Below are positions 28-4,809 of a stretch of 26,172 bases of DNA, piece by piece. This stretch comes from a virus. The translations under genes and the position numbers were made by a program. How positions within the stretch are numbered: position 1 is the stretch's first letter; every line of letters starts with the position of its first letter. The stretch covers positions 1 through 26,172 of IMG/VR virus record IMGVR_UViG_3300008110_000447; one strand, 5' to 3'. The notes beneath the pieces were generated by a model. It searched no databases. It had not been told where the DNA came from and worked only from the letters and a program-made list of their open reading frames with translations.

Positions 28-546
28 TTGGCCTTCACTGCTCTGGCAGCAATTAAACAAGGGGTTGCTTTTTATAAAGATGCAAAAGCAGCGGGTAATG
101 ATGTTACTAAAATAGCAAGAGAAATATCTAGTTGTATAGCAAATTTCTTTAGTGCACAAGAACAAGTTAAACAAGTAATTGAAGAAGAGAAGAAGAAGCC
201 TGTAAAGAGTTTAAAGGCACAAGCTCTAGATAACATATTAAACCAAATAGAGCTAGAGAGACAGGCAGTAGAACTTAGAGAGTTTCTAATCTACCATGTA
301 GACCCAGAACTAGGGGCAGTGTGGAGTAGGTTTGAAGAGGAATATGCAAGACTACAAGACGAACAAGAACAGGAAAGGCTAATAGCGGAACACAAAGCAA
401 GGGAGGCAGCATGGCAACGAAGACAGTTAATAAGCTCCCTGCAAGACAAAGCTCTACAGATAGGAGCAGTGGCTCTGATTACTATATACCTCCTCCTCCT
501 GTTCTGGTTAATAACAATAGACAGGAAACTTCGATGGGGTTTTTAA
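28..546 (+). CDS. small phage membrane protein, C-terminal TM
   Basis: About 172 residues. The N-terminal part is amphipathic (alanine-rich, motif YKDAKAAGND), followed by a long charged Glu/Lys/Arg helix that is probably coiled coil. One hydrophobic segment lies near the C-terminus (about residues 145-165, GAVALITIYLLLLFWLI). I recognise the general type from other podoviruses but know no function. It sits just upstream of holin and endolysin, so a role in lysis or membranes is possible. The start is uncertain. The TTG at 28 has no Shine-Dalgarno at the right distance. A good AGGAG at 2-6 is 6 nt before an in-frame ATT at 13, which would give Met-Asp-Pro-Phe-Thr. An in-frame TAG at 1-3 limits any upstream extension. 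No lipobox is visible, which argues against an Rz1-like outer spanin. Confidence 0.75.
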   Translation: MAFTALAAIKQGVAFYKDAKAAGNDVTKIAREISSCIANFFSAQEQVKQVIEEEKKKPVKSLKAQALDNILNQIELERQAVELREFLIYHVDPELGAVWSRFEEEYARLQDEQEQERLIAEHKAREAAWQRRQLISSLQDKALQIGAVALITIYLLLLFWLITIDRKLRWGF

Positions 547-698
547 TAGGTCTAATTGCTCTAGTCTTTGCGTTTGTACTTATTCTTCCTGTGTTAGGTT
601 TTATGTTATTTGATATTAACGCTGCTAAACAAGAAGTACGATATGAAGTACAGAAGGTAGAGCAGCTTCGTAAACAAATTGAGAAAGAGAAAAAATGA
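411..698 (+). CDS. small membrane protein with coiled-coil tail, two possible starts
   Basis: Single-TM protein. The hydrophobic segment is residues 42-67 (from MGFLIGLIALVFAF), followed by a charged coiled coil (VEQLRKQIEKEKK). The long form starts at 411 after a strong GGGAGG (401-406, 4 nt spacing) and overlaps the preceding gene by 136 nt. A second in-frame ATG at 534 has AGGA at 523-526 (7 nt spacing) and gives a 54-residue form that starts exactly at the TM segment and overlaps by only 13 nt. The extra N-terminus, including IPPPP, may be partly a shadow of the upstream gene. The topology (TM then coiled coil) beside a holin would fit a short inner-membrane spanin or a holin accessory protein. 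This is inference from position and shape only. It ends in an ATGA overlap with the holin gene. Confidence 0.6.
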   Translation: MATKTVNKLPARQSSTDRSSGSDYYIPPPPVLVNNNRQETSMGFLIGLIALVFAFVLILPVLGFMLFDINAAKQEVRYEVQKVEQLRKQIEKEKK

Positions 699-1207
699 TT
701 CCAATCTTAGGAGCCTTGCTAGGAACACTAGCTGAGAATGGCCTTGGTCTTCTGTCCTCTGCCATTCAAGCCAAGGGCAAGGAAGTTGTAGAGAAGACAC
801 TGGGTGTCAAGATTGCTGACAATCCAACACCAGCAGATGTAGCAGCCTTACGCCAGCTTCAGTATGACCACGAAGAGCGTCTCTTAGAGCTTGGCATTGA
901 GAAGGCCAAGATGGAACTGGCTGAACTTGAGTTGTTTGCTAAGGCAGCACAGAGCGAAGAAGACAACATCTCCTCTCGCTGGAATGCAGACATGAGCAGT
1001 GACTCTTGGCTGTCCAAGAACATACGCCCTATGTCCCTCATAGCCATCTTTACAGGTTACTTTGTGTTTGCTATGATGAGTGCTTATGGGTACAATGCTA
1101 ACGAGAGCTACGTAACCCTGCTAGGAAATTGGGGAATGCTTATTATGGGAGCCTACTTTGGTGGTAGGACAGTAGAGAAACTAGCTGACTTAAGGAGTAA
1201 GAAATGA
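695..1207 (+). CDS. holin, GTA-type 3TM family
   Basis: 170-residue holin. It permeabilises the inner membrane so that the downstream endolysin reaches the peptidoglycan. The sequence has the hallmarks of the 'holin of 3TMs, for gene-transfer release' family: a hydrophobic glycine-rich N-terminus (about 2-24), a long Glu/Ala/Lys helix, then the typical block W-N-A-D-M-x-S-D-S-W-L-S-K-N-I-R-P (about 97-113). Two membrane segments follow, at about 113-131 and 141-158, ending in GGRTVEKL. The length is typical. It begins in an ATGA overlap with the previous gene and ends in an ATGA overlap with the endolysin, so a lysis operon is clear. Assignment is from remembered family motifs; no search was run. 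Confidence 0.85.
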   Translation: MIPILGALLGTLAENGLGLLSSAIQAKGKEVVEKTLGVKIADNPTPADVAALRQLQYDHEERLLELGIEKAKMELAELELFAKAAQSEEDNISSRWNADMSSDSWLSKNIRPMSLIAIFTGYFVFAMMSAYGYNANESYVTLLGNWGMLIMGAYFGGRTVEKLADLRSKK

Positions 1208-1542
1208 GCCTATCAGACCATCAAGCAGCTTTCCTGTTAGACATGTGTAAGCTCATTCAATATGCCACAGAGCAAGGCTTCAAGGTGACAGGCGGGGAGC
1301 TTGCACGTACACCAGAACAACAGGCCATCTATGTCAAGACAGGCCGTAGCAAGACAATGAACTCCATCCACTTGAAGCGATGTGCAATGGACTTGAACTT
1401 CTTCAAGGATGGAAAGATTTGCTGGAACAAAGAAACCCTTGCACCACTAGGGGCTTATTGGGAAAGCCTCCATGTTAAGAATAGATGGGGAGGCAACTTT
1501 AAGTCTCTCGTAGATTGTCCACACTTTGAGCGTAATGTATAA
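1204..1542 (+). CDS. endolysin, M15 family D-Ala-D-Ala carboxypeptidase-like
   Basis: 112-residue zinc peptidase of the M15/VanY type, predicted to cut peptide bonds in peptidoglycan at the end of infection. The zinc ligands fit the family pattern: S-I-H (His56), then A-M-D (Asp63), and the C-terminal D-C-P-H-F-E (His107, followed by Glu109). WGG near residue 95 is also typical. It is a single catalytic domain with no cell-wall-binding module and no signal peptide, so it depends on the holin encoded immediately upstream. The gene overlaps the holin stop (ATGA), and its own TAA overlaps the next start (TAATG). Confidence 0.88.
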   Translation: MSLSDHQAAFLLDMCKLIQYATEQGFKVTGGELARTPEQQAIYVKTGRSKTMNSIHLKRCAMDLNFFKDGKICWNKETLAPLGAYWESLHVKNRWGGNFKSLVDCPHFERNV

Positions 1543-1721
1543 TGAAAACAAAGTCTACAGTTAATAGTGCTGGTGTCTATACCAAACCAACAATGCGTAA
1601 GACATTGTTTAACAAGATTAAAGCTGGCTCATCAGGTGGTGATCCGGGTGAATGGAGTGCTCGTAAGGCACAACTACTGGCTAAACAATATAAAGCAAAA
1701 GGTGGAGGATACAAATCATGA
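1542..1721 (+). CDS. small basic phage protein, SARKAQLLA/GGGYK type
   Basis: 59 residues: MKTKSTVNSAGVYTKP at the start, then MRKTLFNKIKAG, a Gly/Ser hinge, EWSARKAQLLAKQYKAKGGGY and KS. Eleven Lys and two Arg against two acidic residues make it very basic. I remember the pattern T-K-P-x-M/L-R-K...GSxGGxPGxWSARKAQ...YKxxGGGY from many phage and some algal-virus genomes, where it stays uncharacterised. It is too short for most gene-calling cut-offs. Reality is supported by a TAATG overlap with the endolysin stop and an ATGA overlap with the next gene. A nucleic-acid-binding or virion role would fit the charge but is speculation. Confidence 0.85.
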   Translation: MKTKSTVNSAGVYTKPTMRKTLFNKIKAGSSGGDPGEWSARKAQLLAKQYKAKGGGYKS

Positions 1722-1864
1722 GCAAAAGCCAAACACATTACTTGCCAGATGGTAAGATATACAAGGGCGAGACACATAAGTCTGGCAGTGTTTTGATGAC
1801 AGGTAAGCAGCACACAGCCACAAGCAAGAAACTAACACATACACCTCCAAAGAAAAAGAAATGA
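1718..1864 (+). CDS. small basic phage protein, second of five
   Basis: 48 residues beginning MSKSQTHYLPDGKIYKGETH and ending in PPKKKK. It contains the pattern LPDGKIYKGETHK...LMTGKQHTATSK, which I recall from other phages as a conserved small protein without function. It has eleven Lys and only two acidic residues. It starts in an ATGA overlap with the 59-residue gene and ends in an ATGA overlap with the next, so it is firmly inside a coupled operon. Confidence 0.8.
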   Translation: MSKSQTHYLPDGKIYKGETHKSGSVLMTGKQHTATSKKLTHTPPKKKK

Positions 1865-2091
1865 AGAAGCCACAGGAATCTCTGAAAGAGTGGACAAAGC
1901 AAAAGTGGACAACTAGTGATGGTAGTCCTTCAAAGGGAAAGAAGCGTTATCTACCAGAAGCGGCATGGAAAGCTCTCAGTCCTGCTGAGAAAGCTGCCAC
2001 TAACAAGGCCAAAGCTGCTGGTAACGCCAAAGGCAAACAGTTCGTAGCTCAACCCAAAAAGATTGCTGACAAAGCATCTAAATATAGATAA
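1861..2091 (+). CDS. small Lys/Ala-rich protein, third of five
   Basis: 76 residues. The N-terminal motif is SLKEWTKQKWTTSDGSPSKG, followed by KKRYLPEAAWKALSPAEKAATN and a Lys/Ala tail ending in KYR. Eighteen Lys and two Arg against about six acidic residues. The W-x3-KWxTxDGxPSxGKxRYLPxxAW arrangement is one I remember from small phage proteins and from C-terminal parts of some large eukaryotic-virus proteins; I do not know a function. It starts in an ATGA overlap with the previous gene and is followed after 8 nt (AAGGA as the Shine-Dalgarno) by the next mini-gene. Confidence 0.85.
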   Translation: MKKPQESLKEWTKQKWTTSDGSPSKGKKRYLPEAAWKALSPAEKAATNKAKAAGNAKGKQFVAQPKKIADKASKYR

Positions 2092-2099
2092 GGAAATAT

Positions 2100-2252
2100 A
2101 TGAAAGACTCAATGAAACAAACATCTAAGATGGGTAAAATGATGGGTGGCTACACTGCCTCTCCCATGTATAGCACCAAGGCTCCCAAGAAGGCCAAGCC
2201 AATGCCCATGAGAGGCCAGAGAACAGCCACTAACAAGGCTAAAAAGAAATGA
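2100..2252 (+). CDS. 50-residue Met/Lys-rich protein, fourth of five
   Basis: MKDSMKQTSKMGKMMGGYTA followed by a Met/Pro/Lys-rich tail ending NKAKKK. Twelve Lys, two Arg, one Asp and about nine Met, so extremely basic and probably unstructured. It has AAGGA 8 bases before the ATG and an ATGA overlap with the next gene. I recognise no family. The MGGY and NKAKKK segments echo neighbouring proteins, so it may have arisen by duplication within the cassette, though I cannot show that. Confidence 0.7.
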   Translation: MKDSMKQTSKMGKMMGGYTASPMYSTKAPKKAKPMPMRGQRTATNKAKKK

Positions 2253-2527
2253 AGGATAGTAGACTAGCCAAGGTGGGCGTAAGCGGCTATAACAAGCCTA
2301 AAGCAACCCCTAGTCATCCCACCAAAAGCCACGTTGTTGTAGCCAAGGAGGGTGATCAGGTCAAGACCATCCGCTTTGGACAACAAGGGGTGTCAGGGAG
2401 TCCCAAGAAAGACAACGAATCTGAGAGCTATAAGAACCGAAGAGAGAGCTTTAAAGCCAGACATGCTTCTAACATAGCTAAAGGTAAGATGTCTGCTGCT
2501 TATTGGGCTGATAAAGTTAAGTGGTAG
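2249..2527 (+). CDS. small conserved phage protein, YWADKVKW type
   Basis: 92 residues. Recognisable blocks are SGYNKPKATPSHPTKSHVVV, IRFGQQGVSGSPKK, and the C-terminal ARHASNIAKGKMSAAYWADK followed by VKW. The order RFGQ-x-GVSGSP...F-x-ARHxxNIxxGKxSAAYWAxKxKW is a widespread small phage family of unknown function; I think it is, or is close to, DUF5754, but cannot verify this. It is last in the run of basic mini-genes, starts by ATGA overlap, and is followed within 5 bp by the -35 box of the tail-operon promoter. Confidence 0.85.
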   Translation: MKDSRLAKVGVSGYNKPKATPSHPTKSHVVVAKEGDQVKTIRFGQQGVSGSPKKDNESESYKNRRESFKARHASNIAKGKMSAAYWADKVKW

Positions 2528-2531
2528 CCCC

Positions 2532-2560
2532 TTGACAAATATAACAAACCATGTTATAAT
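2532..2560 (+). promoter_or_regulatory. sigma70 promoter of tail and internal-protein operon
   Basis: TTGACA at 2532-2537, a 17-bp spacer, TATAAT at 2555-2560, with TG at 2552-2553 giving an extended -10. Both hexamers are perfect consensus. The expected start near 2567 leaves a short leader with AAGGA before the ATG at 2582. An inverted repeat (ATAACA 2541-2546 / TGTTAT 2552-2557) lies in the spacer and overlaps the -10. Confidence 0.9.
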
Positions 2561-2581: not shown

Positions 2582-3229
2582 ATGACATATTTAGAAATAG
2601 TCAATAGTGTACTACGGAGACTTAGGGAGAGAGAAGTTCTTTCTGTCTCTGAAAGTTCCTATAGTAAACTCATTGGCGACTTTGTAAATGATGCTCGCAA
2701 TGAAGTGGAGACAGCTTGGGGCTGGTCTGCTCTCAGAACAACCTTAACCCTTACAACAACTGCCAGTGTGTTCAACTATGAGTTGAATGGTAGTCAGAAC
2801 AACTTCACTGTGCTTGATGTCATCAATGACACAGATGATCAGTTTATGGAGTATCGTCCCGGTGCTTGGTTTGATAATGCCTATCTAAATCAGGGGCCTG
2901 TTACAGGCTCTCCTACCTATTACAACTTCAACGGTGTTGCTAATGATGGTGATACACAGGTTGACATTTACCCCATTCCTGATGGTGTGTACACAGTTCG
3001 CTTCAATGTTATCTTACGTAATGTAAATATGACAGGGGATGGTGATGATCTCTATGTTCCTTCACGTCCTGTTATCCTTCTAGCCACTGCCAAGGCCATT
3101 GAAGAACGTGGTGAGGATGGTGGTAATGCCAGCATGAATGCATACGCTGCTGGTCGTTCTAGCTTGGCTGATGAGATTGCCCTTGATGCTGCTCGTAGGC
3201 CTGATGAAACTATCTGGTATCCAGTATGA
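2582..3229 (+). CDS. head-tail adaptor, tail tubular protein A-like
   Basis: 215 residues. The N-terminal helix bundle carries MTYLEIVNSVLRRLRERE and KLIGDFVNDARNEVETAWGW, the pattern I associate with podoviral adaptor / tail tubular A proteins (T7 gp11-like and SU10-type adaptors) that join the portal ring to the nozzle. A beta-rich middle follows and then an alpha-helical end (ILLATAKAIEERGEDGG). It is the first gene after the strong promoter at 2532-2560, has AAGGA at 2571-2575, and overlaps the nozzle gene by ATGA. The function is confident as a class; the exact family was not checked. Confidence 0.8.
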   Translation: MTYLEIVNSVLRRLREREVLSVSESSYSKLIGDFVNDARNEVETAWGWSALRTTLTLTTTASVFNYELNGSQNNFTVLDVINDTDDQFMEYRPGAWFDNAYLNQGPVTGSPTYYNFNGVANDGDTQVDIYPIPDGVYTVRFNVILRNVNMTGDGDDLYVPSRPVILLATAKAIEERGEDGGNASMNAYAAGRSSLADEIALDAARRPDETIWYPV

Positions 3230-4809
3230 AACAACTCTCTAGTGCTGCTGTTGCTGCTCCCGGTTTCTTTGGGCTTAACACCCAAGAGAGTGGAGCAATG
3301 CTGTCAGATGGCTTTGCACTTGTAGCTTCTAATTGTGTCATTGATAAGTATGGACGTTTAGGTGCACGTAAGGGTTGGGTACAGAAGACTACAACAACTG
3401 CTGGACTTAGTGGTGCAAACATCTTTAGCCTCTTTGAATACTTGAATGCTGATGGCACATTTGATTACATCAGTGCTGGTAATAATAAAATCTGGAGAGG
3501 TGGCATTGGTGCTACGCTCACAAACATGACACCAACAATGACCATTACAGACAACCATTGGCAGATGGCTTCTTTAAATGACCATTGCTTGATGACACAG
3601 AAGAGCCATGAGCCTGTGTTATTCACAAGAGACACAGGAAGTCCTATATGTGAACGGCTTGTATCACACTCAGTTCCCGGTGTAGATTTCACTGCTCCTG
3701 TGTTTGGTACTGGTACAGCTAATGGCCCTAATGCTTGCTTGGCTGCTTATGGACGCTTCTGGGTGGCAGGAAGTACAGCTTTCCCAACTACAGTGTTCTG
3801 GTCTACAGACATTGCTGATACTCATTTTCCTACATTTAATACTGGTGGCTCACGTACCTCTGGTAGTATTAACATAGCTTCTAAGCTTCCTAATAACACA
3901 GATGAAATTGTAGCTCTTGCTGCACACAATGGTTTCCTCATTATCTTCTGTAAACAAAACATTGTCATTCTAAGTGGTGCTGAGACACCAGCTACAGCAA
4001 TGACCATCTCTGATGTAATTCCCGGCATTGGCTGCATTGCTAGAGACAGCGTTCAGAAGACAGGTAATGACTTGTTGTTCTTGAGTTCTTCTGGTGTGCG
4101 TAGCCTTGGACGTACCATTCAAGAAAAGAGTATGCCCATGCGTGACATCTCTAAGAATGTACGTGATGACTTGTTTGATAATATAGCAAACACAGAAGCT
4201 AAGCTTATTAAGAGTTGTTATTCAGAGAAGTATGGCTTCTATCTATTAAGCTTCCCTTCAACAGCCTCTCCTCTTGTCTATTGTTTTGATTTGAAACAAG
4301 CCCTACCAGATGGGGCAGCTAGAGTTACTACATGGAATGCCTATCCTGCTTATTCTTTCTCTGCTAACAGGGATGGTACTTTGTACATAGGAAAGCCAGC
4401 AGGAATTGGTGAATACTTTGGCTACCAAGATAATGGTAGTGGTTACACCTTCATCTATTATACCAACTACTTTGACTTTGGACAACCAACAATTAATAAG
4501 ATTGCTAAGAAGATAGGCTTTGTTCTTATTGGTGGTGGTGGTCAACGCTTTGTTGCTAAGCTTGGGTTTGATTATTCAAATCAATACAGTAGCTATCCTG
4601 TTATTATGGATACAGGCGCATACGCTGAGTACAATATAGCAGAGTATAACATAGCAGAATACTCCTCTGGCATTGTCATTGATGATGCTTATGTTTCTGT
4701 TGGTGGGCAAGGAAAGATTATTCAAATGGGCTTTGAGGCTCAAGTGTCTGGCTCTCCTCTAAGTGTACAGAAGATGGACATCTTTATTAAACAAGGAAAG
4801 ATTTACTAA
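3226..4809 (+). CDS. tail nozzle, tail tubular protein B-like
   Basis: 527 residues, rich in beta strands. It begins with the block APGFFGLNTQES...LSDGFALVASNCVIDKYGRLGARKGW, which I recognise from podoviral nozzle or 'stabilisation' proteins related in role to T7 gp12. Repeated short beta motifs follow (WSTDIADTHFPTFN, IGCIARDSVQ, DLLFLSSSGVRSLG), consistent with a propeller-like fold. It forms the distal tube of the short tail. An unusual in-frame tandem repeat, AEYNI-AEYNI-AEYSS, is at residues 467-480. Start and stop are fixed by ATGA (3226) and TAATG (4807-4811) overlaps with its neighbours. Confidence 0.8.
   Translation: MKQLSSAAVAAPGFFGLNTQESGAMLSDGFALVASNCVIDKYGRLGARKGWVQKTTTTAGLSGANIFSLFEYLNADGTFDYISAGNNKIWRGGIGATLTNMTPTMTITDNHWQMASLNDHCLMTQKSHEPVLFTRDTGSPICERLVSHSVPGVDFTAPVFGTGTANGPNACLAAYGRFWVAGSTAFPTTVFWSTDIADTHFPTFNTGGSRTSGSINIASKLPNNTDEIVALAAHNGFLIIFCKQNIVILSGAETPATAMTISDVIPGIGCIARDSVQKTGNDLLFLSSSGVRSLGRTIQEKSMPMRDISKNVRDDLFDNIANTEAKLIKSCYSEKYGFYLLSFPSTASPLVYCFDLKQALPDGAARVTTWNAYPAYSFSANRDGTLYIGKPAGIGEYFGYQDNGSGYTFIYYTNYFDFGQPTINKIAKKIGFVLIGGGGQRFVAKLGFDYSNQYSSYPVIMDTGAYAEYNIAEYNIAEYSSGIVIDDAYVSVGGQGKIIQMGFEAQVSGSPLSVQKMDIFIKQGKIY
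4624..4665 (+). repeat. 15-bp in-frame tandem repeat in nozzle gene
   Basis: Units at 4624-4638, 4639-4653 and a partial unit at 4654-4665, each reading Ala-Glu-Tyr-Asn-Ile or a close variant. Units differ at synonymous positions, so the duplication is not brand new or the peptide is under selection. Confidence 0.85.

What the first reader, a model, noticed from the sequence alone, without database searches (positions are those of the whole stretch)
1542..2527. Cassette of five consecutive tiny lysine-rich proteins
Five genes of 59, 48, 76, 50 and 92 codons, all strongly basic, are strung together by TAATG/ATGA overlaps between the endolysin and the tail promoter. Several have sequence patterns I remember from phages and also from large algal viruses. 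Basic, mostly disordered small proteins made with lysis genes could be packaged with DNA, bind host nucleic acid late in infection, or modulate lysis. A set of five in tandem is unusual, and most fall below usual gene-calling limits.
Basis: partly seen in the sequence, partly recalled or inferred. Interest (0 to 1): 0.55.

Follow-up and report, generated by a model that had tools for sequence, protein, structure and literature searches.

The report
Phage cassette of small basic proteins
Five tiny positively charged phage proteins are real genes: two form an inseparable pair, and a third is a stand-alone copy of a folded domain that other phages attach to proteins building their heads, so the set probably helps assemble or fill the virus head, although no experiment yet shows this.

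Summary
Five small basic genes (P1-P5, 1542-2527) run head to tail between a holin/endolysin pair and a perfect sigma-70-type promoter before the head-tail adaptor gene. A chain of five compact ORFs compares with at most two in 2000 shuffles.

They are not mostly disordered. P5 is predicted as a compact domain (mean pLDDT 93.9), as is a P1-P3 fusion from a relative (90.4, pTM 0.60). P1, P3 and P5 are strongly constrained (median dN/dS 0.16-0.18) and belong to catalogued phage families of unknown function (phrog_17747, 14910, 7595). P2 and P4 are variable.

(1) P1 and P3 are an apparently obligate pair: together in 105 of 107 P3 loci, fused with a divergent P1 half in the other two; nine loci in all carry a fusion, which resembles giant-virus DUF5872. 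(2) The P5 domain occurs inside a portal-MuF head protein (CL131) and on either end of XkdF-type prohead proteases (ICP1 Gp125 and relatives), and connects to the uncharacterised Tlr6F/DUF5754 family.

Best explanation: late head-assembly/packaging accessories that enter the procapsid and contact DNA or scaffold (0.45). Virion location and DNA binding are inferred, not shown.

The parts
695..1207 (+). holin-like gene upstream (context)
   Evidence: phrog_3427 holin 1.5e-13
1204..1542 (+). endolysin, M15 peptidase type (context)
   Evidence: PF13539 2.3e-8, phrog_465 3.3e-19
1542..1721 (+). P1, 59 aa, partner of P3; N-terminal half of the P1-P3 fusions
   Evidence: phrog_17747 1.9e-35; with P3 in 105 of 107 P3 loci; median dN/dS 0.164 over 499 pairs
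1718..1864 (+). P2, 48 aa, small His/Gly-patterned family, variable in presence and place
   Evidence: 9 loci by HMM, window included; invariant M1 H7 Y8 G12 G17 H20 G29 H32 S36 L39 H41 K45 in 8 aligned sequences; no Pfam, PHROG or NCBIfam match
1861..2091 (+). P3, 76 aa, C-terminal half of the P1-P3 fusions
   Evidence: phrog_14910 3.6e-35; 17 synonymous and 0 non-synonymous changes against L089
2100..2252 (+). P4, 50 aa, variant of a DUF6496-type protein with its middle replaced
   Evidence: L089 and L149 counterparts hit PF20106 at 37.6 and 38.0 bits, cut-off 24; the window's own P4 does not; alignment
2249..2527 (+). P5, 92 aa, folded domain (beta hairpin plus helices), found elsewhere fused to head proteins
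   Evidence: phrog_7595 3.8e-40; AF2 pLDDT 93.9; homologous domain in ICP1 ORF125 and in the CL131 portal-MuF protein
2532..2560 (+). sigma-70-type promoter, 12 of 12 consensus, closing the cassette
   Evidence: exact copy also in L089, L090, L149 and L009 at the same place
2582..3229 (+). head-tail adaptor (context)
   Evidence: PF24175 SU10_adaptor 4.5e-15

Best explanation
The cassette is a late-expressed set of small, folded, basic accessory proteins of head assembly and DNA packaging. P5 is the free-standing form of a domain that other phages graft onto a portal/minor-head protein and onto the prohead protease, so it most likely enters the procapsid near the portal vertex, contacts scaffold or incoming DNA through its basic surface, and may stay in the virion. 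P1 and P3 act as one unit, two chains of what is a single protein in other phages, probably a nucleic-acid-binding complex made alongside P5. P2 and P4 are exchangeable fillers. Shown: conservation and constraint of P1, P3 and P5, P1-P3 linkage and fusion, predicted folds, P5-domain fusions, late-gene context. Inferred: late expression, entry into the procapsid, DNA or scaffold contact, a physical P1-P3 complex.
For: P5's own family profile phrog_7595 matches residues 534-604 of the 1393-aa CL131 'portal' protein (2.6e-7), between Phage_portal_3 (60-419) and Phage_Mu_F (991-1103), with an InPase domain at 631-752. The P5 profile matches residues 188-261 of ICP1 ORF125 (26.4 bits), whose N-terminus is Peptidase_S78_2 XkdF (6.6e-10) and which the ICP1 literature predicts to be the procapsid protease Gp125 (PMC9040626, PMC7567579, passages). 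Of 87 IMG/VR loci fetched with three such domains, 7 carry it in one ORF with portal and InPase, 4 with the protease and 76 with neither; in two of the four the order is protease-domain (L184, which has ICP1's record length, and L185), in the other two domain-protease (L186, L187). Structure search finds the P5 fold in ICP1 ORF125 and in proteins named XkdF and ChaB. Stand-alone P5 lies between head-morphogenesis and major-head genes in KBS-S-2A and MED4-184, beside scaffold and coat in S-H1, and just before a stabilisation-protein gene in ct3Oc712. A labelled head, packaging or connector gene lies on the same strand within 5 kb in 84 of 130 P5 loci and 59 of 107 P3 loci. P1-P3 directly precede the large terminase gene in MEP402. 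All 61 P1, 57 P3 and 74 P5 non-redundant homologues have net charge above +5.
Against: No virion or expression data were found: listings gave no virion proteome that I could tie to these proteins, but most listed papers were not opened and supplementary tables could not be read; the Cobavirus paper never says 'mass spectrometry'. In CRP-9, HMO-2011 and ICBM2 P5 sits beside lysis or unknown genes, not head genes, and in NCTB a DUF5754 copy follows a transcription elongation factor gene, near thymidylate kinase. 46 of 130 P5 loci and 48 of 107 P3 loci have no labelled head gene nearby; only nine head-type clusters were labelled, each from one representative, and many contigs are short. One of the nine (the window's 3226-4809 cluster) has a PHROG annotated 'amidase' as its best hit (6.4e-35) ahead of head-closure and virion-structural families; leaving it out gives 83 of 130 and 59 of 107. 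30 of 60 P5 relatives also hit a putative tail-tube-initiator model weakly (best 2.6e-4). No solved fold matches, so DNA binding rests on charge alone. The fusions concern P5 only; for P1 and P3 the head link is only neighbourhood. In the IMG/VR portal fusions the MuF part lies in the next ORF where seen (3 loci), not in the same one.
Confidence: 0.45

Rival explanations
1. Late nucleic-acid-binding or host-takeover proteins: they coat host or phage DNA/RNA in the cell (nucleoid remodelling, late transcription control) and are not head components.
For: All sampled non-redundant homologues are strongly basic; the stand-alone NCTB copy follows a transcription elongation factor gene; KBS-S-2A carries a TUDOR-domain protein next to P5.
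Against: The P5 domain's recognised fusion partners are portal/minor head and prohead protease; 84 of 130 P5 loci have a labelled head, packaging or connector gene within 5 kb.
Confidence: 0.25
2. Ejection (internal virion core) proteins: they are packaged and injected with the DNA, like small podophage core proteins.
For: The window encodes internal virion proteins (phrog_342 and phrog_6651) and the cassette lies in the late half; a basic charge suits travel with DNA.
Against: The same domain is fused to a portal and to proteases, which are not known to be ejected (recalled), and it occurs in phages that are not podophages (ICP1, siphocyanophages; morphology recalled).
Confidence: 0.13
3. Lysis modulators made with holin and endolysin.
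For: The cassette starts directly after the endolysin in the window and in L089, and P4 does so in L149; 25 of 130 P5 loci have a labelled holin or endolysin within 5 kb.
Against: Head-gene context without annotated lysis genes in siphocyanophages; only 3 of 130 P5 loci have a labelled lysis gene without a labelled head gene; fusions are to head proteins.
Confidence: 0.07
4. P1-P3 is a toxin-antitoxin-like pair kept together by addiction.
For: Two tiny genes, together in 105 of 107 P3 loci and directly adjacent in 81 of 105.
Against: Nine loci carry both halves as one polypeptide, which is unusual for such pairs; both halves are basic; no match at all for P1 and only a weak release-factor hit for P3 in Pfam (0.1), with unknown-function PHROGs otherwise.
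Confidence: 0.04
5. Chance or non-coding ORFs.
For: P4 has weaker constraint (median dN/dS 0.333 over 24 pairs; above 1 in three of the window's six closest comparisons by dS) and P2 is poorly sampled (0.499 over 9 pairs, dS saturated against the window for all but the identical L090 copy shown).
Against: Shuffle test; profile matches and constraint for P1, P3 and P5.
Confidence: 0.01

Closest known systems
phrog_7595 / phrog_14910 / phrog_17747 (PHROGs v4, unknown function)
   Same: P5, P3 and P1 match over nearly their full length (E 1e-35 to 1e-40).
DUF5754 / Tlr6F (PF19058), polinton-like viruses, giant viruses and phages
   Same: 37 of 60 P5 relatives hit it at E up to 1, best 3.8e-4; NCTB gp177 is a full member (43.8 bits) and a tblastn relative of P5 homologues; small stand-alone protein; a Tunisvirus protein has a similar predicted fold (E 0.017).
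   Different: The window's P5 scores 11.9 bits against a cut-off of 27.4, over profile positions 19-31 of 49.
DUF5872 (PF19197)
   Same: P1-P3 fusion L033 aligns collinearly, 6-104 to 4-99 of 116, E 3.4e-5; listed for the haptophyte virus CpV-BQ1.
   Different: 24.9 bits is below the 27.5 cut-off; in the window the two halves are separate genes with P2 between them.
Portal-InPase-MuF head protein of Aphanizomenon phage CL131 (phrog_220)
   Same: Contains a P5-type domain at 534-604.
   Different: 1393-aa protein; P5 is that domain alone.
ICP1 Gp125 prohead protease (XkdF / Peptidase_S78_2)
   Same: C-terminal P5-type domain, 188-261.
   Different: P5 has no protease part.
DUF6496 (PF20106)
   Same: P4 counterparts in L089 and L149 are members and share P4's N- and C-terminal stretches.
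   Different: The window's P4 lacks the conserved middle and does not match.
DUF6321 (PF19846)
   Same: 28 of 60 P5 relatives hit it at E up to 1, best 0.0019.
   Different: The window's P5 scores 16.1 bits against a cut-off of 28.5, over residues 50-82 only.

Membership tests
phrog_7595 (P5) | profile match over the full length | tested here: met
   3.8e-40, residues 2-92 to 5-96 of 96
phrog_14910 (P3) | profile match over the full length | tested here: met
   3.6e-35, 1-76 to 3-79 of 80
phrog_17747 (P1) | profile match over the full length | tested here: met
   1.9e-35, 2-58 to 7-63 of 63
DUF5754 / Tlr6F (P5) | Pfam gathering score 27.4 bits | tested here: not met
   11.9 bits for the window's P5
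DUF5754 / Tlr6F (P5) | sequence continuity with a true member | tested here: met
   NCTB gp177 (43.8 bits) finds P5 homologues such as MW202701 (2e-7), KBS-S-2A (3e-5) and HMO-2011 (8e-5) by tblastn; the window's P5 finds NCTB gp177 at 5e-5
DUF6321 (P5) | Pfam gathering score 28.5 bits | tested here: not met
   16.1 bits
DUF5872 (P1+P3) | Pfam gathering score 27.5 bits | tested here: not met
   fused relative L033 24.9 bits; the window's P1 and P3 alone, none; 9 of 68 aligned members hit at E up to 1, best 4e-6
DUF6496 (P4) | Pfam gathering score 24 bits | tested here: not met
   no match for the window's P4; L089 37.6 and L149 38.0 bits
phrog_220 minor head protein and DNA pilot (P5) | portal and MuF parts present | tested here: not met
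   P5 covers only columns 533-604 of 1338
XkdF prohead protease (P5) | Peptidase_S78_2 domain | tested here: not met
   absent in P5, present in ICP1 ORF125
Phage_tail_tube_init PF23980 (P5) | Pfam match above the cut-off | tested here: inconclusive
   30 of 60 relatives hit at E up to 1, best 2.6e-4, bits not shown; the window's own P5 no hit; a solved baseplate protein, not shown to belong to this family, aligns in part, E 0.11
head or virion component | presence in procapsid or virion | not testable with these tools
   needs mass spectrometry

The most novel reading that the evidence does not exclude
The cassette is a shared toolkit of small basic head-filling or vertex proteins used both by tailed phages (HK97-type capsids) and by giant and polinton-like viruses of algae and other protists (double-jelly-roll capsids). 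The Tlr6F/DUF5754 and DUF5872 families would then be capsid-interior nucleoprotein or packaging factors that moved between capsid architectures that are not homologous, with phages using them free, in an obligate pair, or grafted onto portal and protease.
Probability: 0.2. Interest if true: 0.8.

Novelty: new member of a known kind. Interest (0 to 1): 0.5.

Why it matters
Tlr6F/DUF5754 has been described as conserved in nearly all polinton-like viruses, numerous giant viruses and some phages, with no known function (PMC4642659 and PMC12220804, passages). Finding a related domain between portal and MuF and on either end of a prohead protease, and as a free protein in marine phage groups, turns that into a direct, testable head-assembly hypothesis. 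The P1-P3 pair gives a second handle on DUF5872, another family without a recorded function.

Tried and rejected
Disorder: not supported for P5 and the fused P1-P3 relative L033; the window's own P1 and P3 were not modelled apart, and P2 and P4 not at all.

Known fold: Foldseek and VIA-align 2 against PDB gave nothing convincing for P5 (no E <= 0.001; 0 of 275 chains with Z >= 2) or for the fusion (no E <= 0.001; best shown Z 2.2); this excludes nothing. Profile search of PDB sequences at E up to 1 gave five sequences for P5 (a phage baseplate protein 0.11, four chloroplast ribosomal L24 0.17-0.81) and none for the P1-P3 alignment.

Toxin-antitoxin: considered because of the tight P1-P3 link; set aside because nine loci fuse the halves. 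Lysis modulation: considered because of position; head-gene contexts elsewhere argue against it.

Nucleotide relatives: megablast of window 1-25000 against phages found only pieces within the ribonucleotide reductase region, 7 records. NCBIfam: no match for any of the five.

Literature: searches were seen as listings; passages were read in PMC12085832, PMC12220804, PMC4642659, PMC3671162, PMC9040626, PMC7567579, PMC10945586, PMC6775973, PMC3281028 and PMC9038755. PMC10945586 used a mass-spectrometry database of E. coli proteins with ICP1 coat, scaffold and decoration and PLE TcaP, so it does not bear on Gp125. PMC9038755 reports ten HMO-2011-type core genes, several without known function; whether any is P1, P3 or P5 was not checked.

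Biases: loci were fetched with P3 (80) or P5 (80), best matches only, plus 8 annotated records and the window, so counts are not a census. A check of the P1-P3 link that does not select for it is the P5 set: 21 of 80 have P3, 19 of these have P1 by HMM, and the other two, L078 and L079, carry a divergent P1 half fused to P3 (read; P1 profile 21.6 and 18.4 bits). Leaving out the seven HMM-detected fusions, 74 of 98 loci have P1 within 60 bases of P3. dN/dS pairs are not independent; loci with N or hits under 20 residues were dropped before that count, and the 90th percentile for P3 is 0.488. The E-value is for one sequence only; the 26.4 bits are what count. P1 tblastn matches cover only about 56-64% of P1.
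Full report
What is there. Five ORFs lie on the + strand at 1542-1721 (P1, 59 aa), 1718-1864 (P2, 48), 1861-2091 (P3, 76), 2100-2252 (P4, 50) and 2249-2527 (P5, 92). They follow a holin-like gene and an M15-type endolysin and end just before an exact TTGACA-17-TATAAT promoter at 2532-2560 that precedes a head-tail adaptor gene (PF24175, 4.5e-15). Four of the five junctions from the endolysin onward overlap; P3 to P4 has an 8-base gap. pI is 10.2-10.75 and net charge +8.8 to +13.5. A chain of five such ORFs was not approached in 2000 shuffles (maximum 2). The window is a 26,172-base virus record with ribonucleotide reductase, DNA polymerase, primase-helicase and internal virion protein genes; I read it as a podophage near the Cobavirinae/HMO-2011-type groups. 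DNA matches in the phage collection were limited to the reductase region (7 records).

The genes are real, and three are strongly conserved. P1, P3 and P5 match phrog_17747, phrog_14910 and phrog_7595 at 1e-35 to 1e-40, all of unknown function; P2 and P4 match nothing. Median dN/dS over pairs with dS 0.1-1.5 is 0.164 (P1, 499 pairs), 0.155 (P3, 382) and 0.177 (P5, 409). It is weaker or poorly sampled for P4 (0.333, 24) and P2 (0.499, 9). Between the window and L089, P3 shows 17 synonymous and no amino-acid changes.

P1 and P3 are one unit. Among 169 sequences (160 fetched loci, 8 annotated records, the window), 107 have P3 by HMM and 105 of these also have P1; no P1 was found without P3; in 81 of 105 P1 ends within 60 bases upstream of P3. 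Seven ORFs hold both halves in one frame by HMM (L007, L018, L024, L033, L048, L052, L054). L078 and L079, the two P3 loci without a called P1, are further fusions with a divergent first half (P1 profile 21.6 and 18.4 bits). In the set fetched with P5, which does not select for the link, 21 of 80 loci have P3 and all 21 have P1 if these two fusions are counted. The fused form aligns collinearly with Pfam DUF5872 (L033: 6-104 to 4-99 of 116, E 3.4e-5, 24.9 bits against a cut-off of 27.5; 9 of 68 members hit at E up to 1). AlphaFold2 gives L033's fusion a mean pLDDT of 90.4 and pTM 0.60.

P5 is a folded domain shared with head proteins. AlphaFold2 on 60 aligned relatives gives pLDDT 93.9, pTM 0.81: a short N-terminal helix, a beta hairpin and three helices. 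Seventeen positions are invariant across the 60, among them S82, A83, Y85, W86, K91 and W92 near the C-terminus. In Aphanizomenon phage CL131 the same domain (phrog_7595, residues 534-604, 2.6e-7) lies between the portal domain (60-419) and the MuF minor-head domain (991-1103) of a 1393-aa protein. In Vibrio phage ICP1 it is in the C-terminal part (188-261, 26.4 bits) of ORF125, whose N-terminus is an XkdF-type protease (6.6e-10) and which is described as the predicted procapsid protease Gp125 (PMC9040626 and PMC7567579, passages). Of 87 IMG/VR loci fetched with three versions of the domain, 7 carry it in one ORF with portal and InPase, 4 with the protease, 75 as a short ORF alone and 1 as a longer ORF without a recognised partner. 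The protease fusions come in both orders: protease then domain in L184 (same length as the ICP1 record) and L185, domain then protease in L186 and L187; in three of the portal loci MuF lies in the next ORF. One short stand-alone ORF (L239) links the groups by tblastn: it matches P5 of CRP-207 (1e-20), Aeromonas phage proteins (4e-23), the CL131 portal (2e-16) and the ICP1 protease (4e-13). The structure library of viral proteins gives the same picture: ICP1 ORF125 (1.6e-3), proteins named ChaB (2.8e-3) and XkdF (3.7e-3), an unnamed 1393-aa protein (1.0e-3; the length of CL131 gp012, identity not checked) and a Tunisvirus protein (0.017).

Relation to Tlr6F. Pfam DUF5754 is hit weakly by 37 of 60 P5 relatives (best 3.8e-4) and DUF6321 by 28 (best 0.0019); the window's P5 scores 11.9 bits against 27.4 and 16.1 against 28.5, so it is filed under neither. 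NCTB gp177 is a clear DUF5754 member (43.8 bits) and is linked to P5 by tblastn in both directions, so the families are connected. Tlr6F is reported as conserved in nearly all polinton-like viruses, numerous giant viruses and some phages with no known function (PMC4642659, passage).

P2 and P4. In L089 the P2 slot holds a different 35-aa Cys-rich ORF and P4 is a full DUF6496 protein; in L149 the order is endolysin-P4-P1-P3-P5. The window's P4 keeps the ends of that protein but not its middle. P2 is a small family with invariant His and Gly positions; L057's copy finds two Roseobacter phages by tblastn.

Context. P5 lies in head modules of siphocyanophages and just before a stabilisation-protein gene in ct3Oc712, a record with P22-type genes. 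In ICBM2, CRP-9 and HMO-2011 it is near lysis or unknown genes; in CRP-1 and CRP-603 the terminase genes follow some kilobases on. P1-P3 sit directly before the large terminase in MEP402. Within 5 kb on the same strand, 84 of 130 P5 loci and 59 of 107 P3 loci have a labelled head, packaging or connector gene (labels from one representative per cluster); without the one cluster whose best PHROG is annotated 'amidase' the counts are 83 and 59. The closing promoter is exact at the same place in L089, L090, L149 and L009 and near-consensus in L097; in L022 the adaptor follows P5 after 9 bases without one.

Reading. The best-supported account is that these are late head-assembly or packaging accessories: P5 a free form of a head-protein domain, P1-P3 a two-chain protein. 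Late expression, entry into the procapsid and DNA or scaffold binding are inferred from fusion partners, neighbourhood and charge; no proteomic or genetic data were found. Against it stand neighbourhoods without head genes, a DUF5754 copy after a transcription elongation factor gene in NCTB, and weak hits to a tail-tube-initiator model. That giant viruses carry these families is taken from CpV-BQ1's gene table, PMC4642659 and one structural match; wider statements about their distribution are recalled.

Noticed in passing
L181:4405-8586 (Aphanizomenon phage CL131 gp012): A single 1393-aa protein joins portal, P5-type domain, an InPase-type domain and MuF minor-head protein; an HU-family gene lies nearby on the other strand.
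   Followed up: partly
L186 (ORF 2800-3813) and L187 (ORF 2785-3807): The P5-type domain precedes the XkdF-type protease instead of following it as in ICP1.
   Followed up: partly
L146:3291-3560 and its cluster of 16, upstream of P3 in 13 loci: Another small family, which by its sequence pattern I recall as DUF6321-like (not tested). A representative (L111) also matches the C-termini of several larger unknown phage families, and L146's copy has relatives in 182 phage records, mostly cyanophages and pelagiphages.
   Followed up: partly
L172:2747-2971 (cyanophage KBS-S-2A): A Hva1 TUDOR-domain protein (1.4e-9) directly precedes the P5 homologue.
   Followed up: no
L089:2143-2250: A 35-aa Cys-rich ORF replaces P2 between P1 and P3 in a close relative.
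   Followed up: no
window 28-546 and 411-698: Two overlapping ORFs upstream of the holin, each with a hydrophobic stretch; possibly spanin-like by reading alone, no convincing family match.
   Followed up: no
L001:3566-4048 (CRP-9 gp66), L106-L108: P3 extended by a Cys-rich, zinc-ribbon-like tail.
   Followed up: no
L003:6667-7026 (HMO-2011 gp63): The P1 homologue carries an extra basic N-terminal segment not seen in most relatives.
   Followed up: no
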